A program made the translations under genes and the position numbers. A stretch of 64,000 nucleotides of DNA, taken from NCBI RefSeq assembly GCF_037975245.1, contig NC_092581.1, forward strand, positions 10,671,303 through 10,735,302, read 5' to 3'. How positions within the stretch are numbered: position 1 is the stretch's first letter; every line of letters begins with the position of its first letter. Below the pieces are notes generated by a model. The model searched no databases and had not been told where the DNA came from. It saw nothing but the letters and a program-made list of their open reading frames with translations. Shown here piece after piece: positions 1,738 to 60,113 of this stretch. This DNA comes from Apostichopus japonicus (Eukaryota > Echinodermata > Holothuroidea > Aspidochirotida > Stichopodidae).

Positions 1738-2099
1738 GGGGATTTTGTTTTATATTTATATTAACAAATCATGTTTCCAAGAAACAAACACCAGCAAGAT
1801 ATCTTACTGTAGCTTGGACGCTGCTCTATGTTACACAAAAATAGAAACATGTATAGTCTTGTTTTTACAAGGACTTGCAGAACAATACGGCGGCAAGTTC
1901 TTTCTCAATGTAAATAATATTTGGAATATTTCCTAAGCTAAAAATATCACCACAGTTTCGGGTAGAGTAATTGTTATACTAATGGCATGATATAAGTTTG
2001 TACAATCCGTCACAAGGTATACAGGTATGAATGAGATATACGTCCACCCGGTCTAGGCCAGTGTTTGTAAAATGTGTGGCTAATTAAACTATTACAATT

Positions 2100-2455: not shown

Positions 2456-2807
2456 AAGTTTCACTTCCATTATTGAAGAAAGAACGCGACAAATACATTG
2501 AGAATTACTGATAATCAAAATATATCATAAGAGTAACAGTAGCATGATGAAACATATATCAAAATATTCTTGGGAATTTCTGATTCTACGCCTTCTTTGT
2601 AAGTGATTAATACTAATATCACGAGTATCGTTAGACGGCGAAGTTTCCAGAAGCCATTAGAATCATTTGTAATCCACTAACTGACGTGTGAATGTAGGAA
2701 CGGGATGGGGGTCGGGGGGGGGGCCTGGTGGAAATTCCAGTTGAAATTTTGAACTGGGTTCAACTGGAATTTTCTATACGGAAATTGGCCCAAATTTGAA
2801 CTAGGTT

Positions 2808-3065
2808 GAAATGGGTGAACTGGGTCCAACTGGTTCAACTATGTTTCACTGGGTCCAACTGGTTCAAGTTCAACTATGTTTTACTGGGTCCAACTGGTTC
2901 AACTATGTTTTACTGGGTCCAACTGGTTCAACTATGTTTTACTGGGTCCAACTGGTTCAACTATGTTTTACTGGGTCAACTATGTTTTACTGGGTCCAAC
3001 TGGTTCAACTATATTTTACTGGGTCAACTATGTTTTACTGGGTTAAACTGGGTGAACTATGTTTT
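2808..3065 (+). repeat. Tandem array, period about 29 bp (left arm of element A)
   Basis: Repeats of a unit reading ACTGGGTCCAACTGGTTCAA followed by CTATGTTTT, with three near-identical copies at about 2880-2965 and shortened variants on each side. Two overlapping reading frames across it (rich in GSNWFNYVLL and GPTGSTMF) come from the repeat and are not genes. Confidence 0.88.
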
Positions 3066-5159: not shown

Positions 5160-5625
5160 ACATAGTCCAGACCCAGTTGGGCCAGTGTGAAACCTAGTTC
5201 AACCCCAACAGGGAAAGTTCACCAGTAAACATAGTTCAAACCCAGTTGGGCTTGTGCAAACCAGTGAAACCTAGTTAAATCCCAGCTGGGTCAGTTCACC
5301 AGCCAATAGTCCAAACCCAGTTGGGCCAGTGCAAAACCAATGAAACCTAGTTCAACCCCAACAGGGCAAGTTCACCAGTCAACATAGTTCAAACCAAGTT
5401 GGGCTAGTGCAAAAACCAGTGAAACCTAGTTGAAGCCCAACTGGATCAGTTCAAACATAGTTCAAATTCAGTTTGGCCTGAACAAACCCAGTTGAACATT
5501 GTGTAAACCCAGTTGAACCTAGCTCATGTACAGCATAGCCCAGTTGGAACCCAGTAAGACCCAGTTAAACACAGTTAAAAACCAGTTAAACATAGTAGGC
5601 CCTAGTAGAACCTAGTTGACTTTTT
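5160..5625 (-). repeat. Inverted counterpart array (right arm of element A)
   Basis: Degenerate repeats of CCCAGTTGGGCCAGTGCAAA, ACCAGTGAAACCTAGTTCAA and CCCCAACAGGG, i.e. the motif of the left arm in inverse orientation, decaying to CCAGTTAAACATAG near the right terminus. Period is about 60 bp, made of two related halves. It is more diverged than the left arm. Confidence 0.75.
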
Positions 5626-5654
5626 AACTGGGTTCTACTGGAATTTCTACCAGG

Positions 5655-7734
5655 GGGGGGGGGGGGTAAGGTGTCTTGCAGTTAGATCAATTGATATCTG
5701 CTTAACTTTGGGTAAAACTTGCATAGTTCCCGTAAATTTGCCTAACATTTGCCACCAAATTCAAACAGCTACTTTAAAATGTATTACAATTTTCTAATGA
5801 GAACTTATTGTCTTTTTCTTTATTTAAGTTGCATGTACAGGAATTATTTTAGTAAAAAAAAAGGAACAAAAGAGTCCGTTCGGGTTCCAGAGGCGGAGCT
5901 ACCATTTTTTTACCAGGTGGTCAAGCCCAAGATCAAACATGTACATTTGGTGTATAGACCTTTAGAAAATTTAAAATCTGTCCACTCATGAATGCAATTG
6001 CTGCTACACATTTTTCTTGAACTGCTGATATTACAGCAGCAAATTGCGAATCATATTGAGTAGAATTATGAAGAAACTGTCTGTGTCCAGAAGTGTCCAT
6101 TCCAGTACATTAAAACAGGCTCGACTGGCTCAAGTCTGGGTCCAAGACCGAAGTCCTCATGCAGGAAAGTGAGTTCAAGTCCACAGTCTGAACTTGAGTT
6201 CTCTAGCACTGGCGATATTAAATAATTATATGTAAAGGTTTGCCACTGAGAAAATAGGAGTTTCACCCCCTGTGTAATTTTAATTGTTCTACAAAATATC
6301 AACTTTAAAAATGAACTTGAAATATGCCCTGAAACAATATTAGTACAGGCATATTATAAGTGGCAGAGCGCTTCAAGTAATATGCTGAAAACTCTTATAT
6401 TAAGAAAGTGTTAATGATTTTTCAAACTACCAATTTATTTACTATTTTGGGGGGGGGGGTGGTTTCAAGGTTTTTGGGACATTCAGAACTATGAAATAAC
6501 TTCTCCTTCACACTTGCATAAGACCATTAGAATAAACGGTATAAAAACAACACTAAGATGACACTAAAAGTTTGTGTAACTTTATCAAAATAGGCTATTT
6601 CTAACACTGCAGTCATGTAACATTTGAAGTGTTCTATGAGTAAATTAAAAATACCAAAAGAAAAAAAAGTACAACATGCGTTATGGCAAACCATACTTTT
6701 GCACTAAGTTATGTATTTACTCTAACCCTCTTACAGCACTTGAGGCAACATCAATGCATGATATAATACTTAAGTTGGGTGACATATATACCATCCACAG
6801 ACTAATTGGGGTTCATAATATTGAAAGAAGTGATGATCATGGAATAGTTGAGAAGCTTTAGGCTAGTCCATGACACTAGTACAAGGTATTCATCAGTGAC
6901 ACATGCACGTATTACTTCCATTGTCTATAGATAGCCTATACCTAGAAAGGGGATATGGGCAGGCATCATGCACCCCGTCACTTTACAAATTATCTGCATG
7001 AGGTTTTAGCCTATTAATATATATCACAAGTTTTATTCCACTGTTTCCATCTGGCGAAACCACTCCTGAATAAGCAATGTAATGTTGCTGGGGTAACTAA
7101 TTACTTGCATACATATCACCATTAATTTCATACCAACTGAGACAATGCTAACAGTTACAATTGCATTAAAAATAAGACCTTAATTATAAAACGACAATAA
7201 TGATCATCTACTACCCATGACTAATAACATTAACTATTATGATATAGATTTGATGTGTTCTTCTGGAGATATAGTGTTCAACTAGTCTGCTTGGTGACAC
7301 ACACTCGCACATGCACATCCATAGGTACGTAGCTCTATAGCTAGAGCTTCTTACATAGGAAATATTGTTTCTACTACGTTTCTATGTTTTGCACAGTGGG
7401 GAACACATATGACCTTTGACCTCCATCAAAGAAGAGGCGTTTCTTCCTCTCAACATTTAGCATAAACATAGCAAGTATAAGATTGTGTCGATCTTTCCTG
7501 CTGGATATGTCATGTTTAAAAGGTTTTTGTTTTGAAAATTGACTTCTGGTGACCTCAGCGTACAGCTTACCTTTAAATTAAATAATGTATGTTTTCGTTC
7601 TTTTAATATCATACATCTACGTAAATATTGGGTTAACGTATGCTAAGTTTGAAATTCATGTAAGCTTCCCTTGTGAAGTTGCAATGTGATGCTGTGTTTA
7701 CAAGTCCCAAACGGACACACCTAGTAGACGGTTG
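5655..7734. other. Intergenic, no gene seen
   Basis: AT-rich unique-looking sequence with a G run at about 6450. Short reading frames here (for example 5749-5991 and 6066-6302) have no recognisable motifs or splice context and are not called. Confidence 0.6.
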
Positions 7735-7985
7735 CCGTTTCATAGTGTACTGTATACACAGTAAAAACAATGTGTAAAAGTTAACGGGGTATAAAAGTGA
7801 GGGGTAAAGAGTTGTGCAATTTTTACACAACGCTGAGTAAAACATGTATATCAGGCGACACAGACACAGGTGTAATGATTTACAAATGCGTATTGTGTAA
7901 AAAAAAGGACCAATTTGCCCCTTTCTACCGGTAAAACAAAATACCGGTGTAATTTGTTGCACTGCACTGGGTAAAATACATTTAT
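7735..7985 (+). repeat. GTAAAA / TTTACACA motif cluster, left
   Basis: About 250 bp saturated with the motifs TGTGTAAAA, TTTTTACACAA, GGGGTAAA and CGGTAAAACA. It ends about 60 bp before the SAM-gene start codon. A denser cluster of the same vocabulary lies at 12490-12895, mostly readable as the inverse. Together they resemble the subterminal arrays of the other elements in this window, but I could not find matching outer termini. Confidence 0.5.
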
Positions 7986-8045
7986 GTTACAACTTTGATG
8001 TGTAAACACGCTTTCATACCGCGTCGCTGCTTGCAGAACGACAAC

Positions 8046-9522
8046 ATGGAAGCCACTAAAAGTTCGATGGTCGTTTCACAATTTCTGGAAAACATCGGCC
8101 TAGCGGAACTGAAGCCACAATTAGAAGGTAGGATGGTGTATTTCGGGCACCAGTACTAACCTTTTATGCGGAAAGAATAATATTTCAATAAGTCTTGAAC
8201 TACAATTTCACCGTTGAATACTGAACGAAAACTGTTTTAAACGGCATATACTCGTCGCCTAGGCCTCACTCTTGTTTAACGTTACGAATAAATGTTAGTG
8301 CAAGGTTGAACGTTAGGCTAAGCTATTTCTAATAGTAAGCGCCAAGCATACATATATAGCCTTTCGTTCCTCTCTAGATTCTCTTTTCATGCCCATAGAG
8401 ACTAGGTAGTGCACATAACCATCTTGTTCGTACTAAAGATATTACTCACGTATGAGAGTAACTTAGGTTACGTATAACGTTGGCCAACGTTGAACCATCC
8501 TAGCTTTGGCTTATGTTTAAGGCCCAAGCCAATTCTACATTTATATACTGATAGGTCTCCTTAACCAACACTACAAATAGGCAAGCGATACAGCCTAGGC
8601 TAACATTACCAGTTGAATATTAGTTTTAAGGCCAGGCAATGACTCATTATGACTAGCATATCCATTAAAATAAGCCTCACTATGATCCTGCAGTAGTCAA
8701 CCAAGACCCTGGCTCTCATATGTTAGGGCCAAATGGTAACACAAGCTTTGTTAGTTGTGATGAAAATAGTATGCTTTGCAATCATAATGGCGTATGTGTG
8801 TGTTTGTGCTGCCAAGCTTGTAAACACAGTATTTCAAGAAGGGAATTTTGGACTTCTCATGTTTGGTGTGTACGTGACCACATTAGGGACAAGAAGCGCA
8901 CTGATTTTTGGGGAAGTCAATGGTCATTTGGGGTCATCAGAGGTTAAATTGTGAAAACTACTAAACCTGATATCTCAAGAAGGGAAGCTTGGACAGATCT
9001 GATATTTGATATGTGGGTGTGTCACATGAAGTTGGCCTACAAGAAGCCTACATTCCAACTAAGACCTTGGCCCATGGTGGCTTAATAAAGTAATGATGTT
9101 AGTGTTTAACCTTTGAACGCAGTTGACTTTTACCTGAAGAAAATAAGTTATGTTAATGAGTGGGCTAAGCAGTAAGCACATTAATATCTCTGCATTTTTT
9201 TTTTATTTCACAATAAAATGTTTACATTCTCTGGTTGTTTTTTATGTCTAGAATAATATGTGATGATTGCAATATCCATGAATGTTCATTTTACGGAAGC
9301 AATTTCCTAATATGCAACATGTCCTTTGTCATTACTGTTATTAAGCTTTGTAACAGTGTTATATGGAAAATATTTTCCCTCTAATTTCCACAGCTCACAG
9401 GATTGATGATGAAGTATTTGAGTTACTGGATGACGAGAGCATAACACAGATAATCCCCAAACTCGGTCTTCGTTTAAAGTTTAAACATCACTACAACCTA
9501 AGGTGCAACTCTCTTTCAGAAG
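8046..9522 (+). CDS. SAM-domain protein, first two coding exons (incomplete)
   Basis: Exon 1 (8046-8127) starts with ATG in a good context (ACAACATGG) and ends GAAG|GTAGGA, phase 1. Exon 2 (9394-9522) follows the acceptor CTAATTTCCACAG and ends GAAG|GTAATA, again phase 1, so the frames join. The predicted start carries VSQFLENIGLAELKPQLE followed by IDDEVFELLDDESITQIIPK and LGLRLKF. This is the pattern of a SAM (sterile alpha motif) domain: a hydrophobic helix 1, the I-D-(D/G)-E block, a D-(D/E)-S-(I/L) turn and the final P-K-(L/I)-G helix. SAM domains self-associate or bind partners. I recall large families of uncharacterised multicopy SAM proteins in fish and echinoderms, but have not checked this. 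No intact third exon was found; candidates at 10,682 and 11,045 are broken, so the locus may be a pseudogene or the rest of a mobile-element gene. Confidence 0.62.
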
Positions 9523-10681
9523 GTAATAATATCATTGTTCAACACAGGTTCGATTCCTTGCTGCACACAGAATAGTATATGTGTCCAGGTCCATGTGCAT
9601 ATGTACGTGTACTGTGTATGCATGAGTGAGTGTGTGATGCTTGGCTTTGTTACGTGATAACTCAACAATGGGTGATCGCCCTTTGTTACTTAAAGATATT
9701 ATTGTGTATGGTGTTCATCGATCTCATCGTAAATATCAGTTAACGTATTGGGTCAGAGGTCAAAATATTTCAATAACAATGATTCTGCACCCAAAGGTCA
9801 CATTATATCCAAACTTTGTATGATCTTTTTGGTTATCATGTTTGTAAATGTTATTGTGACATAATTCTGAGTGGTGGGCCTCATTTCATAAGATGGCATG
9901 ATATATCAATTACCATGCTAGTAGATGCCCCGTAGTAACTTGTAATCAATTGTTTTTGGTGTACATAGCATTGATGTTGTCACAGATTGAGGTCAATATG
10001 TAAATGTTGCAATATTACTCAAGTAATGGTTCTGATGCCACAGGCAATCATCAAAGGTATTACTGTACTACAGTATAAATGCCCTGAAATACTGCATTTA
10101 TGCTCATAGTAATCAGTTCCACTAAATAAAATTAAATAGACTGTTAACCCTGGAGCACCTGCATGGTTGTCAAATTGGGTGGGTGCGGAATATGCCTCTT
10201 CCTTAAAAGGAAATACCATCACAAAAATGAACTAGTAGTAACCATGGGTGAGGGTTGCATGGGGATACCTTCTTTTAAGGGAAATTTCCTGATAGTTTCA
10301 GTGCCCCTTTGACTCTATACCCCACATAACTCGCCCATTGTCAGAACCTGGCTATGTTACTGCAATATACTACCAAAATAAGTTGCCCTTAATTTGGCCA
10401 GAACTAACATATCATTTCCATGGTACCTCTAGACTTTGATAATTTATTATACCAGGAATCTTCATAGGACTGGAAAAGAAGATATTAAATAATATTTCAA
10501 ATCCTTTTGGTGTCGAGACAAGTATGACCTGTGTGTTGTAGAAGTTCCCCCTGAAGAAACCTGTTTCTTTTTTACTAGCATTGGTCAGATATGCTTAAAA
10601 CTACACAACTGGAAGGTTACCTATACATATTTCCCAGATTGTGGTCAATATATATAAATTTTATATAATAACTTGTCTTTT

Positions 10682-17441: not shown

Positions 17442-25572
<8,131 letters not shown>

Positions 25573-26872
25573 CTGAAGCAGTATGTGGCCTCTCTCCTGT
25601 TCGTACGTGTAGTTATCGTCTGTCATGGCCGCGCTGCTTTCCTGCGTACTGTTTACCTTTCATATTCATCTGTTTTCTTCTTGATCATATACTGAATCGA
25701 AGGTCACAGGTTGAAAGTCCGCGACGTATATTGCAACACAAAGGGAACTTCCCACAATTGCGAAATTTTTCCCTGAGAGTGGGTAGATTCTACGGCAGCG
25801 TTGAATGGACATCATACTTGAGACTTCACACAAATAACGACTGAGACGTCGCAAAATATTTTTAAAAAAAACGTTTTGCAAATTGACGCGATTTTCTAAC
25901 TACAGTGGCGTTTAATATGGTAGAAAAAAACAATTGGCCGTTTTGCCTACTTGGTACCAAATGTGACCAAAGGTCAACATATCTGCAAATACTCATTTTA
26001 CGCACTTGGAACGTCTCGTCAAACTTCAAAAATCGTTTTGACGGAAAACTCTTAATCTGTTTTGTTAATTGTTTTTTTTATCCAATTTGCCATATATGCT
26101 ATCCCTGGATGTGATTTTCCTTCTACAATACCATAGGATTCTTCTTCCAGATTCTGAAATTGTTGGCAAGCTAATTGCTGGTGTCTTTAATTGATAATGA
26201 GCGTGTTTGTTAGATTTGCCATCGCCATGTTGCCAGAACGTGAATTAGATGAAACGTTCGGTGTTTTTTTTATAACCTAGTATAGAGCTCGTTAAGTTAA
26301 ATGATGAGTGGAAAAAAATATTACCTTAAAATATTACATGATAATGCAGGAAAACTCACGTATGTTAAAAATGAAAATATTTTAATGGTGACGCGGTGAG
26401 AAAAATTGATGAAGGATAACCCGTGGCATATTGATCTATTAGTTACTTTATTTCAACACTATAATAAAACTGTTCATACAGTTTTAAATTGCTTTGAAAC
26501 ACAGAAATTTCATAATTTTAATAAAAAGTCTTTGATGTTTGGATATAAAAGAAAAGGCTGATGTCGGTAAGATTGATTAGCTATATTAAAAAGATTCACA
26601 TGACAACAAGAGCGTCTTCTTACGAACACCCCACCCCTCCCCGTCCATGCAAAATATTTGTATTGCTTTTGCTAAAACTTCACAAACATGTCTGTTAGTG
26701 CTTTAATTTGACAACATTGCATTCTATGATATGTTAAATCGTATATCAATGTCAAGTACATATTAAACCCACTATGTCAGGGTATCTACATTTAGGTTCT
26801 AGAGTGTGAAATGACACACCAGTAGAATAACTGTGGATATAGATATATATGAATATATATATATATGTATAC

Positions 26873-27060: not shown

Positions 27061-27923
27061 TTACTTTTTAGTTGAAATACAGCGCCTTATAAATTGTTGT
27101 ATTTCAACTTCGTCCATGTCTTCTTCCTCGCTACCCTTATTGGTAGCAAATTGACAAGGCATTCCATCCACATCTTGATGTTTCTCCTTTGGTCGATCTC
27201 CTAACTTCCAGTCTGATACCTCCTTTCCACATCCAACACACATCACTGTAGATGTACCATCAAGACAGTAAAATCCAGTAGCAGCTAAATCGTACCTATC
27301 GACGGGACTGCTGAGCGGCCATTTCTCAAAAGACATCAGTCTGTTGAACTCACTCCAGAAGAATTCCATGGCATCTTCCTCGTTGGAGGTTTCTCCAGAA
27401 TCGGCTTCCTTCTGAGGACTGTCAAACTGTGTTCGTTTCTTGATTTCATTCTCTGATAACTTGATCACAAAATCACACCCCGGATAGATCTTCTTGTGAA
27501 GCCTGATCGGAACTTCAAATTCCGACCAGTTGGAAATGACTCCTCTGCATTCATAGCAAACCACTTCATCAGTAGTGCCAGTGCAGCAAAAACCAGCGAC
27601 TGCCATATCTTTCATTGATATTTCCCCTTTCCACTCCTTAGTCATAAAGGTATTTAGACGATTCTTGTAACATTCCATACCTTTTTGGTCCATACCTTTT
27701 TGGTCCATACCTTTTTGGTCCATACCTTTTGGGTCCATACCGTTTGGGTCCATACCTTTTGAGTCCATATCTTTTGGAAATAGCTCCTTAAATTTCTCCT
27801 TTTCCATAATGACAGGCATTATCTTTCTGGGTGGTTCCCTTTTAGTAATTCTTTTCAATTTTTCAAAAACCCTCATTTTGTAGCAAGTTACAACACAAAC
27901 CCAACGGAATGTCGTCCAACAAT
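27061..27923 (-). CDS. Two-BIR protein without RING, with an expanded KGMDx repeat (271 aa)
   Basis: One coding exon runs from ATG 27,876 to TAA 27,061. An acceptor (TCTTTACTGCAG) places the exon start at 27,923, so 47 nt of 5' UTR share the exon. BIR1 spans about 74-138 with ligands C107, C110, H127, C134. BIR2 spans about 179-243 with C213, C216, H233, C241; its H-to-C spacing is seven residues rather than the usual six. Residues about 37-66 are seven five-residue units of the form (K/N)GMD(Q/P/S), encoded by a 15-bp tandem repeat at about 27,680-27,770. There is no UBA, CARD or RING, so it cannot act as an E3 ligase alone. It may bind IAP-binding-motif proteins, or pair with the full IAP next door. 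Its duplicate at 30,652 lacks the repeat. Confidence 0.88.
27680..27775 (-). repeat. In-frame 15-bp coding tandem repeat
   Basis: On the plus strand the unit reads CATACCTTTTTGGTC with later units diverged (TGGGTC, TGAGTC). Three central units are identical, which indicates recent expansion by slippage. It adds a hydrophilic Lys-Gly-Met-Asp linker upstream of BIR1. The paralogous site (31,258-31,275) has a single KGME. Confidence 0.93.
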
Positions 27924-28899
27924 CTGCAGTAAAGATATTAGAATTTGGTTATTAAAATTAAACAATCATTAAAGTACGTGATATGAAGGTAACTTATTGA
28001 CCGGAACAAACATCAGATCACTGAGTATAAGTTTGACACTTTATTTTGAAATAAATTGTGTTTTTTGACAAGCCAATAAATTAAGTGTGAGTCCAATATC
28101 GTAGACAATTTCGGTTGGTATTAATTTCACCCACCGACAAAGCTCTTAAACAACATTGACAGACATTTGATTCCATCAGACATTACTTTTGTAAAGAATT
28201 TCGTCATTTTTCAACATGTGGGCTATAGGAAGATATGCTGGCATCTTAAGACTTCCAAACAAAAAATTAAACATGCATATTAAAAGGAATAATTTAACGG
28301 TTTGAGATCAAATCAATAGATAGTTAAGCCTCAATCATCATTGAACATTACAGCCCAATCGTGCAGTGAAGATGAATAGCAAATGCTGAATTATTGCTTT
28401 GAAACACATTGATGTATGTATATATCAGTACAAGGCCATGTATGATAACGTGACAGGTGAATTCACACCTTGCGAATATCCCAAACTATCGTATACAGTG
28501 GAATTTTTGCTTCTTCAAATTGACTTCGAATAGTTATTCGGCTTAGGCTAATATCCATATGTGACGCACCGACAAAACGGAAACTATACCCTACAACATA
28601 TTGTTCACTGTTTTACAACAGAAGAAGTAACAATTAAGTACATTAATTAACCGATAACACCTTTCAGAAAGTCTAGCGTGTAATTATATGTAGACTTACC
28701 GGTTTAAACTGAGGGAAAAATAGGTTATTTTTCATGCACACTGATCCGCCCAATTGAGCCGGGTGATGTGTAGAAGGAAGACTTACTGTATCGTGGTAGG
28801 ACTATGCATATATACCGTAGGAACTGCACCCTTGTAGTTATCATATAACATGTTATAAGGTGCAAAGGTTGCAGTGCAAATGTTTGTCTTCAATATCTC

Positions 28900-30639: not shown

Positions 30640-31896
30640 TTATTGTTACTTTTAAGATGACAAACAGTGCGTTATAAATTGTTTTATTTCAACTACGTCC
30701 ATGTCACCTTCCTCGCTACCCTTATTGATAGCAAATTGACAAGGCATTCCATCCACATCTTGATGTTTCTCCTTTGGTCGATCTCCTAACTTCCAGTCTG
30801 ATATTTCCTTTCCACACCCAACACAAATCACTGCAGATGTACCATCAACACAGTAGAATCCAGAGTCAGCTAAATCGTACCTATCGACGGGACTGCTGAG
30901 CGGCCATTTCTCAAAAGACATCAGTCTGTTGAACTCACTCAAGAAGAATTCCATGACATCTTCCTTGTCGGAGATTTCTCCAGAATCAGTTTCCTTCTGA
31001 GGACTGTCAAACTGTATTCGTTTCTTGATTGCATCCATTCGTAAGGTGTTCACAAAATCACACCTTGGATAGATCTTCTTGTGAAGCCTGCTCGGAATTT
31101 CAAATTTCGACCAGTTGGAAATGACTCCTTTGCATTTATGGCAAACCACTTTATCAGTAGTGCCAGTGTAGCAAAAACCAGCGACTGCCATATCCTTCAT
31201 TGATATATCCCCTTTCCACTCCTTAGTCATAAAGGTATTTAGACGATTCTTGTAACATTCCATACCTTTTGGAACTAGCTCCTTAAATGTCTCATTTTCC
31301 ATAATGACAGGCATTATATTTCTGCGTGGTTCGCATGCAGTAATTCTTTTCAATTTTGCAAAAAGCACCATTTTGTAGCCAGTTACAACACAAACCCAAT
31401 GTAATGTCTTCCAAAATCTGCAGTAAAGACATTAAAATTTGGTTATTAAAATTAAACAATCACTAAAGTACGTGATATGAAGGTAACTGATTGACCGGAA
31501 CAAACCTCAGATCAATGAGAACAAGTTTGACACTTTATTTTGAAATGAATTGCGTTTTTGACAAGCCAATAATTTAAGTGTGAATCCAATACCATAGACA
31601 GTATTGATGTTAACCATCGACAAAGCTCTAAAACGTGTTATCAAGATTGGCAGACATATGACTCCATCAGACATTACTTTATGATAGATTTTGTCATTTT
31701 TCAACACTGGAGCTATAGGAAGACATGGCATCGTAAGACTTCCAAACAACAAATTAAACATGCATGTTAACAGGAACAATTTAACGGTTGGAGTTCAAAT
31801 CAATACATAGTTAAGAGCTTAAGCCATCATTGAACATTAGAGAGGTAATCGTGCAGTGAAGATTGCAAATGCTGAGTTATTGCTTTGAAACTCATA

Positions 31897-35573: not shown

Positions 35574-35611
35574 CGTCCGTATGGCAAGCCGTTTTAACAT
35601 TTACCTCGCAA

Positions 35612-35966
35612 TTCGACTTAAGTCGAATACATTTCACTTAAGTGGAATACATTCTACTTAAGTGAAATGTTATTCCACTTAAGTAAAATGTATTCCACTT
35701 AAGTGGAATTCAATTTCACTTAAGTGGAAATGGATATTTCTATTTCACTTAAGTGGAAATGCATTCCACTTAAGTGGAATTGTATTCCACTTAAGTGAAA
35801 TTGTATTCCACTTAAGTGGAATGCATTTTCACTTAAGTGGAATTGTATTCCACTTAAGTGGAATACAATTTCACTCAAGTGGAATCATATCTTTTGGGCG
35901 TCAATTTCACTTAAGTGGAATTCTGTTCTGCTTAAGTAAAATACAATTCCACTTAAGTGGAATTGT
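35612..35966. repeat. Palindrome array, left end of element C
   Basis: About 16 units of the perfect or near-perfect palindrome TTCCACTTAAGTGGAAT and its half-variants (TTTCACTTAAGTGGAA, TTCCACTTAAGTGAAA), at roughly 17-24 bp intervals. The outermost unit is CGACTTAAGTCG, the same as at the other end. Likely transposase-binding sites; each unit can form a hairpin. Confidence 0.93.
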
Positions 35967-36071
35967 TGATATGTGGCATATATATAAATACAATTTAGGG
36001 TAATGTTCGTCGTAACGCATTCAATTGCTCATCACATATAATGATGTATTCGATCCTCGTTGCACGTGTAC

Positions 36072-36371
36072 TTCATGGCTATGGCTATTCATTCACATCT
36101 AACATTGCTGGAATGCGATCAAATAATTGTTGTTGCTAGAGACACAATTCGAAGTTTTGTTTCCTCACTTGCACAGGGGAATAATCAGTATGATGCACAA
36201 CAGAAGCGACTTACATCTTGTTTAAGTAACATAAGCAGAATTCGTAAGTTTTTAGATAGTGAAACTTTTGACGAAATAAAAGATTCCATCCCAAACCCGA
36301 AATCCACAAAAAGTAATACGTTCTCTTGCCCTTGTCAATGCGTTTCCGGCTGTAGCTCCAACCACTTGTAA
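36072..36371 (+). CDS. Hypothetical protein near the left end of element C
   Basis: An open frame of 99 codons from ATG 36,072 to TAA 36,371, just inside the left palindrome array. The middle looks like helical protein (RDTIRSFVSSLAQGNNQYDA, then RLTSCLSNISRIRKFLD). The C-terminus has a Cys cluster, CPCQCVSGC. No family is recognised and there is no splice evidence. It could be a real small gene, an exon, or chance. Confidence 0.28.
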   Translation, partial: FMAMAIHSHLTLLECDQIIVVARDTIRSFVSSLAQGNNQYDAQQKRLTSCLSNISRIRKFLDSETFDEIKDSIPNPKSTKSNTFSCPCQCVSGCSSNHL

Positions 36372-36770
36372 AGTATTTGTTATGGCTTTATTTCGGTAAT
36401 GGTATTCGTCAGGTACCAGGTCAGGTACGTTCGTACACACCTTGCACAGATGTTAAAGGCGATATCGCTCGTAGACTTTTTTTTGAGGGCGCTGGCATTT
36501 TCGAGGTTTCAGCGAGGTTTAGTGGGACTCCGAAAACTCACGTGACCTCGGTGACAAATTTAGATCAGTGAATAGCACAGGCAAGCGTATGCGTAACAAG
36601 CCCGTACCCATGCACACATAATGTTATAACACAGCATTTCAGATTATTGTACTGTTTACTGCAAAGGATTTTCGTACGCGATAGTTTGTTGTTTGTGTGC
36701 CTTTTGAGTAAAGAATACTGTACGATTTTCGTACAAATACATTCGATAAGACTAGAGTATAGTGACAATC

Positions 36771-39700
36771 ATGGAAAAGGGATCAGGGCAAGGAGAATCG
36801 GGCGAAAGAAAACGACCTTATCCTGGAACGAGCGTAGGTTCAAGTGGAGGAAAGCCATTGTTGCATGGACCTGACAAAAACAGCAGTGCAAAGGAACAAC
36901 AGCGACGAAGAGATGCCACGAAGATCTATCTTCTACGTTCCTACGTAAACTGGCAAATGGAGAAAGAACTCTACAAACATGTCCACGATTTGACTTCTGT
37001 TAGCAACGCAGATTTCGCAGAACATTTGCTTCAGGATCACACAAAAAGGTAATGATTTGCTAAGCTAGGCTAAAACTGTATAGGGTAATACTAGTACATA
37101 GTAGTACTACAGGGTATTGTCCTAGGTAACTGTCAGTATTGCGAAGTACAGAAAACTGCAAAGTTCGGACACCCCTAAGAAATACACGATTTCACCATGA
37201 TAACCTACAAGCGAAAGCCAATATCACTAAAAACTGGGAAGCTACAGTTATTTCCTCTCCAAAATGACCCGTGCGCAAGTATGTACGTACATATCTGTCA
37301 ATAAAATGAAGATAGTTTTTGGGGTATTTTAAGGCTTAGGTGTTCGAACTTCGCAGTGTCTCTGCTATTGTATTTGTAACATACATGATTTGATGAGCCT
37401 AGGCTTTGTAACTAGGCCTATCATTCATTATTTTTCCAATGGACCTAGCGTATGCTAACCTTATCATACTTATCCTAGCACAAAATAGCAGTAAGTTGTA
37501 TTACTGAGTCATCATCATCACTGTTTGTGAATGCTTGTCATGAGGATACTGTATAGGCCGTGGCTATTCTTACGACTAGTCGTAACAATTATTTATAAAC
37601 TATTCTTACGGCAAATTCAAGTGCAGTAAAGTAAATAAAGCAACTGCGCATGTAGTAGGGGTAACCCAAACATAACCCTAAACCTCAATCCTAACCCTAA
37701 CCGGAAGTTATTGTTACTCCTCATCGTAAAATTAGTACTCCTAATCATAAAAATAGCAACTGCCCATGCGTAGTCGGAAATTATTCTTACGACTAGTCGT
37801 AAGAATAGCCACTTTGTACTGTATACAGTTAAAAATTAAAATATACTTCCTAAAGAAGACTGACAGGGACTGGGGGTCTTTAGTTTCACTCCTCATATTT
37901 ATGCCATGGAAAGCTGGGCCTTCTCATCACCAAAAAGTAAACTGTTTTTTTGCCTCAACAAATTGATGGAAATATATTTTCTAACCACTAGGCCTAGGTG
38001 ATCTGTTCATCCCCACCCCCTCCAGGTTCTAAATTGTTATCAGCTGTCCTTGTTTGAGGAATAATTCTTGTGAATGAGCATTTGAAAGAAAAGCCTCACC
38101 TATGCCCAGTCATAATTAACTAGGCATACTGTATAACATAGGACTAAGGCCTAGTATTAGTAATAAGTATCTGAATTTAGTGTTCATAGTAACTGTATTC
38201 CCTAATTTTGTAATATACACCAGTGAGGAAGGCCTACTGTGCTGTAAAAGTACAACCACATGGACCTGCAATTTTTCCTATAAAAATAATGCATCTACAT
38301 AAATAATTTAGAATCACTACTAACTGATTCACATGTTTTCACACCGCTGCGTATGCAACTAGACCTTAGGTTTTTCTAAGGTCAGCCACAGCCAGCATAT
38401 ATGCAATCAAGTTTTAATGGTTCATTTGGGAAACAGGGTGTTATACTGTTATCTACTGACTGTCTGTCCAATATTCCAGCAATCATGTGTACATTTCTGT
38501 GTTTGGGATTTTTGAAGGAACCCAACTGCTATGCAAGAAATTAGGTAAATTAGCCTCACAAATTGAGGGACCATATTAGTACATATAGCTATACCTATAT
38601 AAACCTTTATATAGCCATGCCTGGAGGTAAGAAAATACCAGTTTTTTTGTGTAGGCCTGATGCTCATACTTAATGATGCTGTGCTAAGTTATCATATTTT
38701 TTATATATAGTCAGTACTATGCTTGTTTTTGTTCAGCTTCTTCTGAATGATCTGATGTTTAGTGTTCAAAAATTATAATATCTGGTCAATTCCATGATAA
38801 GGTCAACATCATACCAAAAAATTTAAAATCATTGTACATTAAAATTGTATAAGTTTCCAATAAATAGAATACTTGTAGTTACTAAAAATAATTTTTTCAC
38901 CCCCGAAACATCATTTGTTTGATTATGGGGTCAGTTATAACAAATGGTTCCCGTTGTAACTAAATTATGAAAAATACAGTGAAATTCATTTTGTGCAGAT
39001 TTGTACATAGTAATCATAGATATCATCAGTTTTTTGGACTAATTATATCTGCTATAGCATAGTGTTCACTTAATAGCTTCAATTTTTTTCGACATCAAGG
39101 CATTAGACAATAGTGGTGAATTGAAAACACCCTCCATTTACTGTCACGCGAGTCACAAAATTTACTGTTTTTGTTTTTTTTCTCCTTGCCTGCACAATAG
39201 TTTTACCCCAATTAATGAATATCAAGTCTACACATAGATACCAAAGGGATTACTGAATTTTCCTTTCCAGAAGATATTCAAATTTTGCGGAAAATCACCC
39301 TTTATGAATGTCACGCGAGTCACGTCACGCTAGTCACGTCAAATCAAGATAGTGTTTCTACCTATTTACTGTGTGTTGGACTAATTATATTTGCTATATA
39401 GCATAGTGCTCACTTCATAGCTTCAATTTTATTTTGATATCAAGGCATTAGACAACAGTGGTAAATAGAAAACAGTAAATACCCTCGATTTACTGTCACG
39501 GAGTCACAAAATTGACTGTTTTTTTTTTCTCCTTGCCTGCACAATAGTTTTACCCCAATTAATGAATATCAAGTCTTCACATAGATACCAAAAGGATTAC
39601 TGAATTTTCCTTTTCAGAAGATATTCAAACTTTGCAGAAAATCACCCTTTATGAATGTCACGCGAGTCACGTCACGCGAGTCACGTCAAATCAAGAAAGT

Positions 39701-42700
39701 GTTTCTACCTATTTACTGTGTGAAAATTACAGGGATGTTATCTAGTTTGATGAATGAATCACTGATTAAAGATATCATATATGCATTCCCCTTTAATTAG
39801 GCAACTTGAATAATATGGGCACACATAATGCAACTAATTATCATAATTTCATTTGAAATATCAGAATTTAAAATCATGCATATTTATTCGCAATATAATG
39901 CCTATTTTATCACCACATTTGGAAAGTTAGCACATGTCATTGACTTTTTAGTATTATACTAAAACATAATCTACATTTGTATCTGGCAAAGTCATGTGCT
40001 ATGTCTTGACAACCTTAAGGTCTTAACTGCTCAATCATTCCCAAAATCCTATGAGCAAATGTATCTTCTCAAATATTACACTTTTGGTTTATTCAAATAT
40101 GACAAATGAGAATGGTAATTTGAATCACATTTTGATAGATCTGTTTCTTCTATAACTTTCAAATGAGTGACTTCAACAGACTAAATATTGTTATAAATAT
40201 TAATTGACAAAATATATTGCCTGAACAACTGTACTACCCGTACAGTATATTACCTACTGTCTGCAGTCATGAAGGTTACTCCGGGACATTAATATCATCT
40301 GGACATTCCCAAGGGAAGTACCTTTTGGACACTTTCTAGACCAATGAATGTTATATTTCACTATGCAAGATCTGTACCTTCAATTCACTACTGCATTTGG
40401 TCTAGAACTATCCGAAAAATGAACTTGTCACGCGAGTCACGTTTTCTTGTCACGCGAGTCACAATACATCTTCATCGTTATTTTCATGCGTTACAACTTT
40501 TTTTCAAAGTTGCATAGCAATTGAGGTAGAGGTATTTTTCAACTTCAGTATGACTATAAAAAGTGATTGGAAATTTTTTAATAAGACATAAGATATCAAA
40601 CATTTGTGTATGCATTCTGATTTTTGCTAATAGTAACTGTCATGCGAGTCACGTTTAGTTTTTCACCAATTTCACCCCCAATACTTGAGGTATAAATATT
40701 TTTTCTCTACTGTTGTAAGCATTAAGGCGTACATTCACTGCTACATTAATGCTTTTCTCCCAGGTAATTTCTTTATTTGTTAAATGATATCAAATAGAGA
40801 GGAATTTGAGTAAAAATGTCACGCGAGTCACCATGGAATTGACCATCTATTAAATTTGGTGGCCGAAACTATCTCTTGTGGAGAGTAATCTAGCGTTAAA
40901 TTAATGGTAGTCTGAAATCAAGCTATTCATGTAATTAGGAATTTTTCACAATGGTGGGCTTATGTCATGGAGTAAGCTAGCATCTCAATTCTCACTCATG
41001 AAACCAACTGCTCACATAAACAGGAAGTTTACACAGTAGGTAAATAATGAGTGTACATCAAACTTTGATCAAAAGACTGGACATCTTTTAGCGATATGAA
41101 ACCAATCAGTTCACTAAGACAGGAAGTTTACATAGTAAATTTTACATTGACATGTGAGCTCAAGTTGTTGGGCAAGCAGTTGGGCAACACCAAATTATCC
41201 TTACAATTCTTGAAAGGTACCGCGGTTTATGGATATGTTGAAGAAGAGTATGAAAGAATATCTCATCCTTATCTGGGTTTAAATCAATGTGGGTTAACAA
41301 TATGTTATTATTGAAATCTGCCTAAGTGTTTGTTTGTTACTTTTCTCTTTCATATTTTTTCTTGGGTAGGTATGATAAAAACATGTATGTTTGTAATGAT
41401 TTGGTCATTACCAGATTCATTACGCATACAATTAAGCTTGGGGTGTACAGTAAAACTACTATTTCAGTTATATGATTTACGGACAATTTTTTTTGTTTCA
41501 TTGTATAGGTTTCAAATGCATCTTTTCCGGAAAGATGCTGAAAGTCAAACAGAGGCATTCTCAGCAGCTGTCACCACAGAAAGATCAGTGGACACTCAGA
41601 AAGGAGAAGGTAAATTTATGTTTATCCTTGCATGAATTACAGACTGGAAGAGCAGTGCTAATCTTATCTGATCTGATGTGATTAGAAAAATAATACAATT
41701 TCATTCTCATTAAATTCCAAAAGAAAAGAAAAAGATGGTAGCATATTGCTCATCCACTAAAAAGCATACATGTGTATGAGAATTTATAAAAGTTAGTGGG
41801 CCTGATATTATCAGGATCTTCTTTAGAGGCAAACTGACTAGTAACAGTAAATTCAAGAGACACAATAGAGCCTGGAACAGAGAGGACATGGTGAACACAA
41901 AGAAAGAAGTTAATGGTGTATTGAACAAAAGGAGTCAGTGAAAGCAGAGGTATTTAGATAAACTGTGGAGTACAAAGCGAGGATTAAGTAAGGAGAGAGG
42001 GCGAATAAACTATAGCAGAATACAGAGATGGCGCAGGATAAAGTTAGTCATGTCCTTCCTGTATATTGAGTCCATTCAGTTGAATGGTGCTAGGGCACTC
42101 CGTCCACTCTCTCTATCTCTGCTGTGGTGTACTATGTCTGAGATGATTAGTCTACGAATTTAGTTACCTGTTGGGACATGTCTTTAATGGTATGATTGCT
42201 TTCTAGTCACTTCGCCCAACTGCCATTTCGCCCAACCAGCCTGGTCATTTCGCCCAACCAGCCTGGTCATTCGCCCAACCAGCATGGTCATTTCGCCCAA
42301 CCATCATAGTCATTTCGCCCAACCAGCATGGTCATTTCGCCCAACCGTGTCGGTCATTTCGCCCAACCTTATTTTTACTAATATTCAGTCAGAATAATAT
42401 TACTTTTTCTATACCACAAGTTCAATTTGACTTATTTTGGGTTAGGTTACTTCGTAATAGGTAAATAAAAAAGTGAGGTCCACTCGATATCGATCGGAGT
42501 CTGAGCAGTTATTTCGGGTATAATGGGAGGATTACACTACTTTAGGCGTTTACGCATATAATGGAAGTTATATTATTATACAAACACAGGGGAATAGGTC
42601 TTCATAAAAACCTATCAAACCAAACCCCTAAAACACTATTCCATCCTACTGACTAACAATTCCCGAACGTTTCCTTATTAAATATAAACCCGTCCGTAAT

Positions 42701-43519
42701 ATTGAATTACTATATTTAATCAATGTAACCACTTTATCAATATAACCACATATGTAATCACATATGTAATCAATTTAACCACGACTTCAAGCTTCCTTAA
42801 TACTCGGTTCGTATCCCGTAACGTTAACAATTCCCGAACGTTTACTATATCAAACCTATCAAACCTAACCCCTAAAACACTGATCCATCCTCAAGATTCC
42901 TTAATATTCGGTTCGTATCCTGTAACGTTACAAATTCCCGAACGTTTCCTTTTGAAATATCATATTTAATCAAGGTAAGGTTGGGCGAAATGGCAGTTGG
43001 GCGAAATGGTTGTTGGGCAAAGTGTCCTGCTTCCGTATGATTGGGGAGCTGAAAGTGTTCCCCTACTGGAGTCTCCATTTTCATGGTATTGACTTGTGAC
43101 TAGAACTGCTTCTTGAGGGTGGTCTTGGTTTCACCAACATACTCGTAACTTCAATGTCCTCTAAACTCAATGACACCATTTAAATTGAAATATCAGTTTC
43201 CAGTGCTGCATAAGTGTGATAAGTTCTAAACAAAAGGTATATTTTTAGTCACAGCCATAGAAGCTATAGCAGGATACTTGCAATCTAGTAACTCTTGTTT
43301 TATGTAATCTCTACAGATACTCCTGATCCAGTTACTTCAACACCTCTCAAGAAGCCATCTGCCAATGTTCTGTCCAATGTCACCAGTAGGATTAGATATG
43401 GAGCAGCATGGGAGAGAAACCTCAGACTATACGAATACACATTGCCACATTTACATGATCCTGAACAAAAGAGATCATACATATGGCAGGGGCAAGCACT
43501 TTTCCCAGACTTTTGTTGA
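36771..43519 (+). CDS. Three-exon gene of unknown function inside element C (193 aa)
   Basis: Exon 1 is 36,771-37,048 (ATG to AG|GTAATG), exon 2 is 41,509-41,609 (acceptor TTGTATAG, donor G|GTAAAT) and exon 3 is 43,317-43,519 (acceptor CTCTACAG, stop TGA). Phases match at both introns, giving 582 nt. The N-terminus is basic and low-complexity (KRPYPGTSVGSSGG). Then comes a helical block, QQRRRDATKIYLLRSYVNWQ and DLTSVSNADFAEHLLQDHTK, which resembles the N-terminal region of multicopy uncharacterised deuterostome proteins (basic KIYL..x..W block, then an (A/E)-x-LL-x-x-H helix), a guess from memory. Exon 2 adds AESQTEAFSAAVTTE and exon 3 a WERNLRLYEYTLPHL region. Intron 1 holds two nested elements and intron 2 one. 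It may be the element's own DNA-binding or accessory protein, or a captured host gene. No catalytic motif is seen. Confidence 0.6.
37560..37812. mobile_element. 253-bp MITE with palindromic termini, in intron 1
   Basis: The termini are perfect 26-bp inverted repeats beginning GTGGCTATTCTTACGA; the inner 16 bases (TTACGACTAGTCGTAA) are themselves a palindrome. The interior includes CCCTAAACC and CCTAACCCTAACC, which resemble degenerate telomeric repeats. An obvious target duplication is absent. Confidence 0.85.
38783..40845. mobile_element. 2.06-kb TIR element with repeated GTCACGCGAGTCAC motif, in intron 1
   Basis: The ends are inverted copies of TGGTCAATTCCATG (38,783-38,796 and 40,832-40,845). 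Between 39,143 and 40,831 the 14-mer GTCACGCGAGTCAC or a one-base variant occurs about ten times, always in the same orientation. No open reading frame of note. The element is nested in intron 1 of the 193-aa gene. Confidence 0.7.
39030..39716 (+). repeat. Tandem duplication, unit about 343 bp
   Basis: Unit 1 (about 39,030-39,372) and unit 2 (about 39,373-39,716) share TTGGACTAATTATAT, GCATAGTG.TCACTT.ATAGC, ATCAAGGCATTAGACAA, CTCCTTGCCTGCACAATAGT, TTACCCCAATTAATGAATAT and AAGATATTCAAA, ending in paired GTCACGCGAGTCAC motifs. They are highly similar, so the duplication looks recent relative to the host element. Confidence 0.9.
42208..43024. mobile_element. 0.8-kb MITE with TTCGCCCAAC subterminal repeats, in intron 2
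   Basis: The left arm (42,208-42,368) is a tandem array of a 22-bp unit, CATTTCGCCCAACCAGCCTG, with about seven copies. The right end (42,978-43,024) carries three inverse copies (GTTGGGCGAAATGGCA). The termini are CACTTCGCCCAAC and, inverted, CACTTTGCCCAAC. The middle has diverged direct repeats around AATTCCCGAACGTTTCCTT and GGTTCGTATCC(C/T)GTAACGTT. Confidence 0.82.
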
Positions 43520-45948
43520 CAGGTTGTGCGACATTCACAAACGTTGGATTAGCAGCTAATGATACATCTGCATCACCAGATTGAGATAAATTGCTTTCGT
43601 CCATCGTCCATTTTGTTCGATAGTAGCTATGACTGTGAATCAGGAGCTTGGCCACCCTCTAAGTCAATGTGGGCAAGGTTGGGGAAATTCAATCAAGGAG
43701 TAACAATCAGAGAATGGCCAGCTTTATATTGTATATAGACCTACACGCACAGCGTGTATAAATATCTGTATCGGTTTATTTATACTGGTGTTCATTTCCG
43801 TTGCCAGGAGGGGATATGATTTGAACGTGAGGGGGGGTGGGGAGGGGGTCCCATTTGAAGGGTCCAAACGATGCTAATCTTTACATCTATCTTCTTGAAT
43901 CACATGTACCCCTATCGACACGATCAATCAGTCCTGTCTCTCACCTCCTCTCATGCACTGGTGTATTTATTTCCTGGCAAGATAACAGTTAGGCATAGTA
44001 AGGGTCAGAGGTCATCACAACTTAAAGAGTTGTGCAAGTCCCTGTGGTCTCTTACATCCTGGTAGCAGTAGAGAGAAGAAGCCTAATAGATCAGAAACCA
44101 TAATCATCTTCTGTTGTGTCTTATTTTCCAGCATCCTTGAAACATTATGTCCTTCCCCTTTGATTTGTTGATGTCATAAAGCTGTATTTATGTTGTGCAT
44201 TATTTAATTCCAGTATTTAGATTGTATATTCTTCTTGTGTATTTGACAGTATCCCAGTGATCTCCATTTTTCTGCTCTTGGTTTTTTTTCTCTGTACTTT
44301 CATATCATATCTATCTCTACCCCTAGCCTCCATCTCCACATTTTCTTTACTTTCTTCCTCCATCCCTTCATCTGTCTTTCACTCTTTCTTTTTTGACCTC
44401 TTTCCTCCCCTCTGTTTACCCTGTAATGTTTTAGTTTGCCGACTCCCCCACCCCCGCGTCTCACCCCCAAAAAAGTTCACAAGGTTGACAAGTCTCCCCA
44501 TGCTAGTCCCAAGCTATACACCCTTGTTGTGGTGACCGTTCAATATACTTGCGGATCAAATGGAAAGCCCCACCCCTTATTCCCAGTGTAATGAATCGGC
44601 AAATGGAAGATTATTCGGAGTTGTTCGTGATGGTTCAATGATCTTATAGTCAGGCATAGGCCTATATGGTTCTCTTTGTCCTTCATTGCCGTCGAAGTTT
44701 GAAATGAATTAATCGTGCTAGGAACTTCCGGGCAATGTTTAATTTTCTGTGGCAAGAAAAAAAGCTTCCCCCAGTCTCTCCTGGTTGACTATATAGAGCC
44801 TGTACGCCTATATGGTCACACAATAGTATAGATAAGTATGATCCATGCAGACAGCTAGTGTATATTTTTTTTAAATTCAATCCAATTTCAGTTAAAGTTT
44901 CGAGTTGTAATTCGAGTCAGTCGAGATGAGGTGCCCCATGGTGGAGCTGGGTAACCCACCCCAACCCCGTTGCCGACTTTTTGGCATTTCGTTGGGAGCC
45001 GTTCGGAACAAGAAGCAGGATAGTCAATTCTGGGAGTACAGTACGCTGGAAAGCAATACACTGACGTGATTTAGAAAAAAAAGTTTTTTGCTTTGACGGC
45101 CGATGCTCAGCGAGACACTTTTCAATGGAAATAACTATTAGTTTATTGTTCATGTACTTATTCCCTTTTTGCCAATCCTTTCTACAGAGGGTGGAGCCGC
45201 CCCTTATGGCAACTTATTTTCCTTCCCTTTTCCGTTCAAGTTTCGTTATTTTTTAATTCGGGTCAAAGGGGTGCAAGGACAGGGTTTACGTGCACCGGTT
45301 AGGAGGACGGTGTGCAGCTAGCCTGGGCAAGTGCTCTGTGATCGCCTAAAGGGCCCGTTGCCAGGAGTCCAAAATAATTAAATATACATATTTATCTATA
45401 TATGGTATATGACATAAAATGCTTTGTCTTACCCTCCTGATATATAACTAAAATTTATATATAAAATACAATGTAAGCTGTGACTCTGTCTATGTATAAT
45501 TAATACCTAAATTGGCTGAAATACCAATTGTTCACACATGACGGACTTGACTTTACGTTTGATACCCAATTTTGTAATCACTTCAGTCAATTTTTTCACT
45601 CATTCGCGTTTGTCTTTTTGTGACACCAGTCAGCGTGAATCAGACATAAAGTTCATAACTATTAGTTTCTTGAGCTGTTTCTTGACTTCGACTGCTCACC
45701 ATGTAGGCCTAAAAGAGTAAAAGCAGGGAACTGCTAGAGTAGCAGCTCCCTGGTCAAATTATTACGCCTGATGCAAAGCTCGACCGTAACCTATACTGTA
45801 CAGCCCATTAGTTGTGAAAAGTTCTGAACGTAAAACAAAGCACAGTTTTGTATCACACAACACACACGAAAACGCGGCGTAGAACTGCATACTACTGACC
45901 AGGGAGTTGTTCCATAACAACTCCCTGTACTGCCACAGACAAGAAACT
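43520..45948. other. Interior of element C downstream of the gene, no further gene seen
   Basis: Pyrimidine-rich sequence at 44,250-44,480, a more GC-rich stretch at 44,925-45,360, and no frame with recognised motifs. The last exons of a longer product could be hidden here, but no in-phase acceptor-donor pair stood out. Confidence 0.45.
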
Positions 45949-46149
45949 ATGCAGGAATTTCGCCAAGGCCACCGTTCAAGTAACCGAACCCGTTTATTGC
46001 TTACTAGCCGTAAATACGGGATTGCTGAGAAATTACGAGACAACAGCGACGAACCGGTAGAGGGTAGTATTGATATTATTTTTGAATCGGGTGGTGTGAA
46101 GGACAGAATTTACGAGGAAATTACGAGCGATCCCACCTTTAAGTGCTAG
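45949..46149 (+). CDS. Hypothetical protein near the right end of element C
   Basis: An open frame of 66 codons from ATG 45,949 to TAG 46,149. An AG that could be an acceptor (CCTGTACTGCCACAG) lies 12 bp upstream, so it may be a terminal exon. The product is charged (SRKYGIAEKLRDNSDEP, SIDIIFESGGVKDRIYEE) and the sequence is less AT-rich than its surroundings, which favours coding. No family is recognised. Confidence 0.33.
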   Translation: MQEFRQGHRSSNRTRLLLTSRKYGIAEKLRDNSDEPVEGSIDIIFESGGVKDRIYEEITSDPTFKC

Positions 46150-46287
46150 CTGGATCCCGATGGACAGCCGATATTCATTGTGCACATATCGACACCACGT
46201 ACGTACGTACACGTATCGCGGCAAGTTGTTTATAATGGCGCGCAAAGGCATTGGCAAAGTTTGGCGGTAAATGTACTAGCCAATCAC

Positions 46288-46727
46288 ATTCCACTTAAGT
46301 GGAATAGACTAGCCAATCACATTCCACTTAAGTGAAATAGACTATCCAATCACATTTCACTTAAGTGGAATGCATTTCCACTTAAGTGGAATTGTATTCC
46401 ACTTAAGTGAAATAGACAGGACATTTCACTTAAGTGGAATTGTATTCCACTGAAGTAGAATACAATTCCACTTAAGTGAAATGCATTTCCACTTAAGTGG
46501 AATACAATTCCACTTAAGTGGAATGCAATTCCACTTAAGTGAAATAGAATTTAGCTTAAGTAAAATGCAGTGACAAGTTGATGAATTCAGCTTAAGTAAA
46601 ATACAATTAAGCTTAAGTGGAATGGTATTCCACTTAAGTGAAATAGAATTCCACTTAAGTTAAATAGTATTCTGCTTAAGTGAAATTGAATTCCACTTAA
46701 GTGAAATGTATTCGACTTAAGTCGCAT
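46288..46727. repeat. Palindrome array, right end of element C
   Basis: About 19 units of TTCCACTTAAGTGGAAT or close variants (including TTCTGCTTAAGTGAAAT and AGCTTAAGT forms). The outermost is CGACTTAAGTCG, mirroring the left end. The inner three units are spaced by CTA(G/T)CCAATCACA, giving a 33-bp higher-order repeat. Confidence 0.93.
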
Positions 46728-47091
46728 TGCGAGGTAAATGTTAAAACGGCTTGCCATACGTCCGGGGTCTTTCCCAACCTATACTACCACGAACAATAGC
46801 AGTGTACAGTTGCAATTGTTCAAGGTTTATTGGTTTACTTGTCGATATCAAAAGTTGGACTACTTCCTCTCATCATGTCGACTATAATTCCAAATTTCAA
46901 CATCCCTTCCCCCCTTTTTTTTCTTTTAATTATTCGTTATAAAAAATACCGATATGTAATTATTTCGACTAAACTTCACCAAACTTCAAAAATTCATTTT
47001 TCCTGAAAATTTTCGACTATATATTTGGACTATACTCTCGAAAATATGATGTTCATATAAAAGTTCGACTAATGGGAGGATGACGCAATGC

Positions 47092-59878: not shown

Positions 59879-60113
59879 TATATATAAATGAAAATCGTAA
59901 TGAGTTGGAAAATCAAGAACAGTGAAAAAACTTTCAGCCTCCACCGGGATTCGAACCACGGGCCTCCCGCTCTGTACGCGGACACCCTAACCACTAGGCT
60001 ATGGACGCTGATTGTATGTCCAGAAGTTCGAAACCGGTAAGGAAGATCGTAATTCCACTGTAGGCGTTTGTCACCTATATCGAACAATAATAGTTCTGTT
60101 TTTTGGTGACATA
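59879..60113 (-). mobile_element. tRNA-derived SINE, family 1, copy 4 (best preserved)
   Basis: On the minus strand: head TGTCACCAAAAAACAGAACT, then CTACAGTGGAATTACGATC, GGTTTCGAACTTCTGGACAT, A box TAGCCTAGTGGTTAGGGTG, B box GTGGTTCGAATCCCGG and tail CCAACTCATTACGATTTTCA, followed by TATATATA. Both boxes are near consensus. (TA)-rich sequence flanks both sides (59,752-59,850 and 60,114-60,150). Confidence 0.88.

What the first reader, a model, noticed from the sequence alone, without database searches (positions are those of the whole stretch)
35580..46758. An 11.2-kb element with 6-bp target duplication and no recognisable transposase
Seen: matching termini of about 70 bp, CGTCCG on both sides, palindrome arrays at both ends, one spliced gene inside. 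Established: 6-bp duplications are uncommon among cut-and-paste families (reported for IS3EU, some Dada and Polinton elements), and the start TATGGCAAGCCG does not look like a Polinton AG terminus. Inference: this may be a little-described large DNA element, or a non-autonomous derivative that has captured a gene. It is the best candidate in the window for an undescribed system.
Basis: partly seen in the sequence, partly recalled or inferred. Interest (0 to 1): 0.85.

Follow-up and report, generated by a model that had tools for sequence, protein, structure and literature searches.

The report
Nested transposons posing as one element
What looked like one large unknown mobile element is four jumping genes stacked inside one another, a small one invaded by a larger one that was itself invaded twice; it is a tidy example of something common in animal genomes.

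Summary
The termini, the 6-bp duplication (CGTCCG) and the palindrome arrays are real, but the 11.2-kb "element" is not one unit: it is four nested DNA transposons. (1) The outer one is about 1.5-1.6 kb with TA..TA ends and 6-bp TSDs (IS3EU/GingerRoot hallmarks); 476 termini exist genome-wide. (2) Into its TTAA went an element with AG..CT ends (window 36457-46138), Kolobok-like, usually 6.8 kb, with 143 right ends genome-wide; it carries the spliced "gene". The uninterrupted site was found in 20 of 20 outer loci L009-L028. (3, 4) Two further insertions, 38784-40844 (TSD ATCT) and 42199-43034 (9-bp TSD), are absent from a reference copy (L049). The inner family has a likely autonomous partner: three copies of about 14.1 kb share its ends and first exon (91% protein identity, open) and carry, on the same strand, a 550-aa frame with a borderline match to PF20700, a Mutator-like transposase domain. 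So the "captured gene" is most likely the front of the element's own transposase gene, left by internal deletion; this is inferred. No partner was found for the outer family. These are probably new families of known kinds, but repeat databases could not be searched. Low surprise.

The parts
35574..35579 (.). left 6-bp target duplication CGTCCG of the outer element
35580..36456 (+). left part of the outer, IS3EU/GingerRoot-like non-autonomous element (TIR, palindrome array, open frame near 36045-36371)
36453..36456 (.). TTAA, left target duplication of the inner element
36457..46138 (+). inner TTAA (Kolobok-like) element; about 6.8 kb in the commonest copies, longer here because of two insertions
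36771..37048 (+). exon 1 of the inner element's predicted gene
   Evidence: same exon in the 14.1-kb copies
38780..38783 (.). ATCT, left target duplication of insertion A
38784..40844 (.). insertion A, 2061 bp, both ends GGTCAATTCCATG, absent from L049; right TSD ATCT at 40845-40848
41509..41609 (+). exon 2
42190..42198 (.). GTATGATTG, left 9-bp target duplication of insertion B
42199..43034 (.). insertion B, 836 bp with CGCCCAAC repeats, absent from L049; right TSD at 43035-43043
43317..43519 (+). exon 3, ends in TGA
46139..46142 (.). TTAA, right target duplication of the inner element
46143..46758 (+). right part of the outer element (palindrome array and TIR)
46759..46764 (.). right 6-bp target duplication CGTCCG of the outer element

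Best explanation
A nest of four cut-and-paste DNA transposons. A roughly 1.5-kb non-autonomous element of IS3EU/GingerRoot type (TA..TA ends, 6-bp TSD) inserted at CGTCCG. Later a Kolobok-like element inserted at a TTAA inside it. That element holds a 2.06-kb insertion (TSD ATCT) and a 0.84-kb insertion (9-bp TSD). The nesting is shown by uninterrupted sites in other copies. Inferred: the 6.8-kb element is an internally deleted derivative of a 14.1-kb autonomous family and moves with that family's transposase, and its 193-aa gene is the truncated front of that transposase gene. Inferred too: the outer element moved with an IS3EU-type transposase, which I did not find. The confidence is for the nesting; the Kolobok-like partner I put near 0.8 and the truncated-transposase reading of the gene near 0.65.
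For: Outer family: 236 + 240 termini, control 0. Complete copies are 1.4-1.7 kb and 21 of 22 measured pairs match the outer halves of the window copy at 92-96%. Of 15 target sites (window, 13 single sites, one site in an amplified repeat that accounts for 10 loci) 10 have exact 6-bp duplications, 3 have one mismatch, 2 have none in register. Inner family: the uninterrupted joint is found in 20 of 20 loci L009-L028, with TTAA itself kept in 19. Of 19 other exon-1 loci read, 18 begin at TTAA+AGGCGATATCGCTCGTA, with differing upstream letters. The right end with its TTAA occurs 69 + 74 times, control 0. Of 40 exon-1 places, 38 pair with one of the 100 listed right ends, 18 of them at 6634-6829 bp. 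L049 is TTAA-bounded, 6.8 kb, and lacks both extra insertions. Partner: a right-end variant occurs at 5 places; two of these span 14122 and 14130 bp end to end (coordinates). At C5, C9 and C15 the same exon 1 (91% protein identity, no stop) and a 550-aa frame with PF20700 lie on one strand. IS3EU ends and TSD: PMC10045372, passages. Kolobok TTAA and RR..YY: PMC9587614, passages; AG ends: PMC6004289, passages.
Against: The PF20700 match of the partner is at the cut-off (26.8 bits against 26.5), far stronger PF20700 matches elsewhere (up to 184 bits) were not examined, and the three 14.1-kb copies are not independent. Their letters could not be read. THAP domain and DDE residues were not checked. 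Of the five variant ends, C12 has exon 1 only at 66% with stops and no PF20700 match, and C17 has a PF20700 match 12 kb away but no exon 1 in the listed matches. No IS3EU transposase with the outer ends was found; the one IS3-type hit read (L051) looks Ty3-like to me and lacks these ends. The joint was not found in L050 and L052, outer copies broken by other insertions. The gene model has no RNA support, and a 2-bp insertion breaks exon 1 in 10 of the 19 copies compared.
Confidence: 0.95

Rival explanations
1. One large undescribed element with 6-bp TSDs whose short relatives are internal-deletion derivatives.
For: Short copies share both ends and join element position 877 to 10560, which by itself would also fit an internal deletion.
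Against: The joint holds TTAA once in short copies, while the 9.7 kb is flanked by TTAA twice. The same block starts at TTAA at 18 of 19 other loci; in only two of these 19 did I see outer-family sequence near its left end, L044 and L045. Its right end with TTAA occurs 143 times.
Confidence: 0.02
2. The inner element belongs to another TTAA-using superfamily (piggyBac, Sola3 or other), not Kolobok.
For: TTAA duplications alone do not tell these apart; the transposase match is to a model named Mutator and is borderline.
Against: AG..CT ends fit the RR..YY rule of Kolobok and not piggyBac (PMC9587614, passages) and resemble the AG ends of Xenopus Kolobok elements (PMC6004289, passages). Sola3 ends were not checked.
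Confidence: 0.18
3. The 193-aa gene is an accessory or captured gene rather than the front of the transposase gene.
For: It is a closed reading frame and has no PDB match and no credible Pfam match. Kolobok lineages with separate accessory proteins are known (PMC9587614, passages).
Against: In the 14.1-kb copies exon 1 and the transposase-like frame lie on the same strand, about 8.5 kb apart, so one spliced gene is simplest, but not shown.
Confidence: 0.35

Closest known systems
IS3EU/GingerRoot DNA transposons (outer element)
   Same: TA..TA termini and 6-bp TSDs, as reported in PMC10045372 (passages).
   Different: No transposase identified in the copies read; long arrays of palindromes at about 21-bp spacing next to the TIRs, not mentioned in the passages I saw.
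Kolobok DNA transposons (inner element)
   Same: TTAA TSD, AG..CT ends within the RR..YY rule, large size (PMC9587614 and PMC6004289, passages).
   Different: No recognisable transposase in the window copy; the likely partner matches PF20700 only at the cut-off; THAP domain not tested; the 193-aa protein has one cysteine, unlike the seven-cysteine fold described for KolX.

Membership tests
IS3EU/GingerRoot | 6-bp target site duplication | tested here: met
   10 of 15 target sites exact, 3 with one mismatch, 2 not in register
IS3EU/GingerRoot | TA..TA termini | tested here: met
   TATGG...CCATA
IS3EU/GingerRoot | IS3-like DDE transposase | tested here: inconclusive
   no frame over 112 aa in the three short copies checked; NF033516 search gave integrase-like hits, the one read (L051) looks Ty3-like and lacks these ends
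Kolobok | TTAA target duplication | tested here: met
Kolobok | RR..YY termini | tested here: met
   AGGCG.../...CACCT
Kolobok | Kolobok DDD/E transposase in the autonomous partner | tested here: inconclusive
   PF20700 at 26.8 bits, cut-off 26.5, in 550-aa frames at C5, C9, C15; that PF20700 covers Kolobok is recalled, not tested
Kolobok | THAP DNA-binding domain | not tested
   letters of the 14.1-kb copies not available
piggyBac | ends of piggyBac type, not RR..YY | tested here: not met
   ends are AG..CT; rule
Polinton/Maverick | AG terminus with 6-bp TSD (recalled and from the finding) | tested here: not met
   the 6-bp-TSD terminus is TATGG
Polinton/Maverick | polymerase and integrase genes | tested here: not met
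   no Pfam match at E<=1 in six frames of 36000-45900

The most novel reading that the evidence does not exclude
The intact 193-aa protein kept by many deleted copies is a trans-acting regulator of the 14.1-kb element (a truncated transposase acting as a repressor, in the manner recalled for the P-element KP protein), and the coexistence of an intact and a frame-broken lineage reflects that regulation.
Probability: 0.08. Interest if true: 0.5.

Novelty: new member of a known kind. Interest (0 to 1): 0.25.

Why it matters
It shows how a single genomic copy with good TIRs and a TSD can mislead: the inner boundaries were settled only by uninterrupted sites in other copies. It also gives a case of a high-copy 6.8-kb TTAA family with a plausible 14.1-kb autonomous partner in the same genome, and of a 1.5-kb IS3EU-like family with conspicuous palindrome arrays.

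Tried and rejected
Rejected: a single large element; Polinton; KolX as the 193-aa protein (one cysteine; description). Two long outer copies, at C5:13178261-13184220 (L050) and C15 (L052, an interior piece), carry frames that I read as non-LTR retrotransposons, not as an outer transposase (no family search was run on them). The IS3 family search gave integrase-like hits; the one read looks Ty3-like. The scans of viral contigs found no relative. I first took the low diversity of exon 1 for selection, then dropped it: the loci had been picked by exon-1 similarity, and the intron part of that comparison was misaligned. The chance figure (0.011 expected hits) treats relatives as independent and assumes lengths for two of five elements; it is only a rough guide. 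My first count of outer target sites (8 of 14) mispaired nested ends in L021; the recount is 10 of 15. The searches with exon 3 and with the outer relic peptide did not complete, so two questions stay open.

Full report
Observation. The window lies in a eukaryote-sized genome of 671.6 Mb, at G000:C21:10671303-10735302. The arms are 74 bp and 97% complementary, and 27 of the 28 CTTAAG-type palindromes found in the window lie in the two end arrays (2.24 expected in all). The 31-bp terminus occurs 236 + 240 times in the genome with up to 3 mismatches, and 0 times in the reversed control.

The unit is short. I fetched 20 loci with this terminus (L009-L028). Complete copies are 1.4-1.7 kb, and 21 of the 22 pairs measured align to the joined outer halves of the window copy at 92-96%; the odd one, L021_2588 at 53%, is a mispaired set of nested ends. 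Ten of the 22 sit at one site inside a larger repeat: their first 60 flanking bases agree, and for L015-L020, whose rows I could see, the agreement runs over thousands of bases. I count them as one site. Of 15 target sites including the window, 10 have exact 6-bp duplications (three of them from nested pairs in L021), 3 differ by one base (L012, L013, L028) and 2 show none in register (L010, and L021 101-991).

The extra 9.7 kb is another element. Exon 1 of the gene, used as a DNA query, gave 40 scored matches of 119 candidates at 99-100%. Of the 19 loci other than the window copy that I read, 18 start at TTAA followed by AGGCGATATCGCTCGTA, with differing letters upstream; L047 does not. In the window the block is 36457-46138 with TTAA on both sides. 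A query made of the two flanks joined at one TTAA was not found on the + strand of the window and was found in 21 of 23 loci searched: all 20 of L009-L028, and L044, but not L050 or L052, which are broken by other insertions. The TTAA letters are kept in 19 of the 20. So the site before insertion is seen directly. The right end of the block with its TTAA occurs 69 + 74 times, control 0. Of the 40 exon-1 places, 38 pair with one of the 100 right ends listed (of 143); 18 are 6634-6829 bp long, 9 are 7395-7578 bp, and the window copy is 9690 bp.

Two more insertions lie inside. Against L049, a 6.8-kb copy bounded by TTAA, the window copy has two extra blocks: 38784-40844, flanked by ATCT, with ends GGTCAATTCCATG; and 42199-43034, flanked by GTATGATTG. 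L049 has each target once.

What the families are. The outer ends and TSD match what is reported for IS3EU/GingerRoot (TA..TA, usually 6 bp; PMC10045372, passages). I did not find its transposase. The inner ends and TSD match Kolobok (TTAA, RR..YY; PMC9587614, passages; AG ends in Xenopus, PMC6004289, passages). Six-frame Pfam scans of 36000-45900 gave no family at E<=1.

The likely partner. A right-end variant (AAATTCC) occurs at five places. From the coordinates two of them, at C5 and C9, run 14122 and 14130 bp end to end. A search for PF20700 (113 matches, a lower bound) hit C5:9993470, C9:27008893 and C15:10873846, each with a 550-aa open frame about 5.36 kb from the right end, and C17:25104928, 12 kb from that right end. 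An exon-1 protein search (150 scored of 231 candidates) hit C5:9985005, C9:27000421 and C15:10865345 at 91% identity with no stop, 301 bp from the left end at C5 and C9, on the same strand as the PF20700 frames; at C15 the left end is inferred, giving about 14.2 kb. At C12 exon 1 matched at 66% with stops, and at C17 no exon 1 next to the variant end is in the list. The domain score is at the cut-off (26.8 bits, cut-off 26.5), much stronger PF20700 matches elsewhere were not examined, and these copies are relatives of one another, so I call the partner likely, not shown. I chose PF20700 because I recalled it as covering Kolobok-like transposases; a literature search did not test that link (listing only).

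The gene. Its reading frame is 193 aa over three exons with GT/AG borders. It has no PDB match at E<=10 and no credible Pfam match (best E 0.035, below that family's cut-off). The best reading is the front of the partner's transposase gene, left behind by an internal deletion. Ten of the 19 copies compared (window plus 18) have a 2-bp insertion that breaks the frame from the ATG, so the full protein seems not to be needed in cis. More distant matches at 36-66% exist in the same genome, so the exon belongs to a wider family.

Verdict. The interpretation as one undescribed 11.2-kb system is not supported. I make no claim that these families are absent from Repbase or Dfam, which I could not search.

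Noticed in passing
window 24546-25622, 27064-27948, 30655-31431 (- strand): Three reading frames with two BIR (inhibitor of apoptosis) stretches each; the latter two lie in a direct duplication spaced about 3.5 kb.
   Followed up: partly
L015-L020, L022, L024-L026: The outer element sits at the same site (GTCGTGCACT) in a larger repeated segment found on several contigs.
   Followed up: partly
L039, L040, L042, L045: Inner-family copies carry an insertion with a 9-bp overlap at its borders: about 700 bp in L039 and L045 and about 300 bp in L040 at window-equivalent 37078-37086, and about 700 bp in L042 at 37404-37412.
   Followed up: no
L044, L045: L044: an inner-family copy lies in the palindrome array of another outer-family element. 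L045: an outer terminus lies about 120 bp from the inner left end.
   Followed up: no
inner element exon 1, after window 36834: A 2-bp TA insertion separates an intact and a frame-broken lineage of the inner family, both in many copies.
   Followed up: partly
L021: Several outer-family copies are stacked or nested in one locus, three pairs with exact 6-bp duplications.
   Followed up: partly
G000 C7:5562174, C16:8067547, C16:3188875: PF20700 matches over the same profile region as the 14.1-kb partner, with open frames of 532-646 aa; possible further relatives.
   Followed up: no
window 59935-60009 (-) and 1030-1102 (+): tRNA-like sequences by Rfam; the first is also called tRNA-Cys by ARAGORN.
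   Followed up: no
window 302-652 (-): Weak immunoglobulin V-set match, 17.6 bits, below Pfam's cut-off.
   Followed up: no
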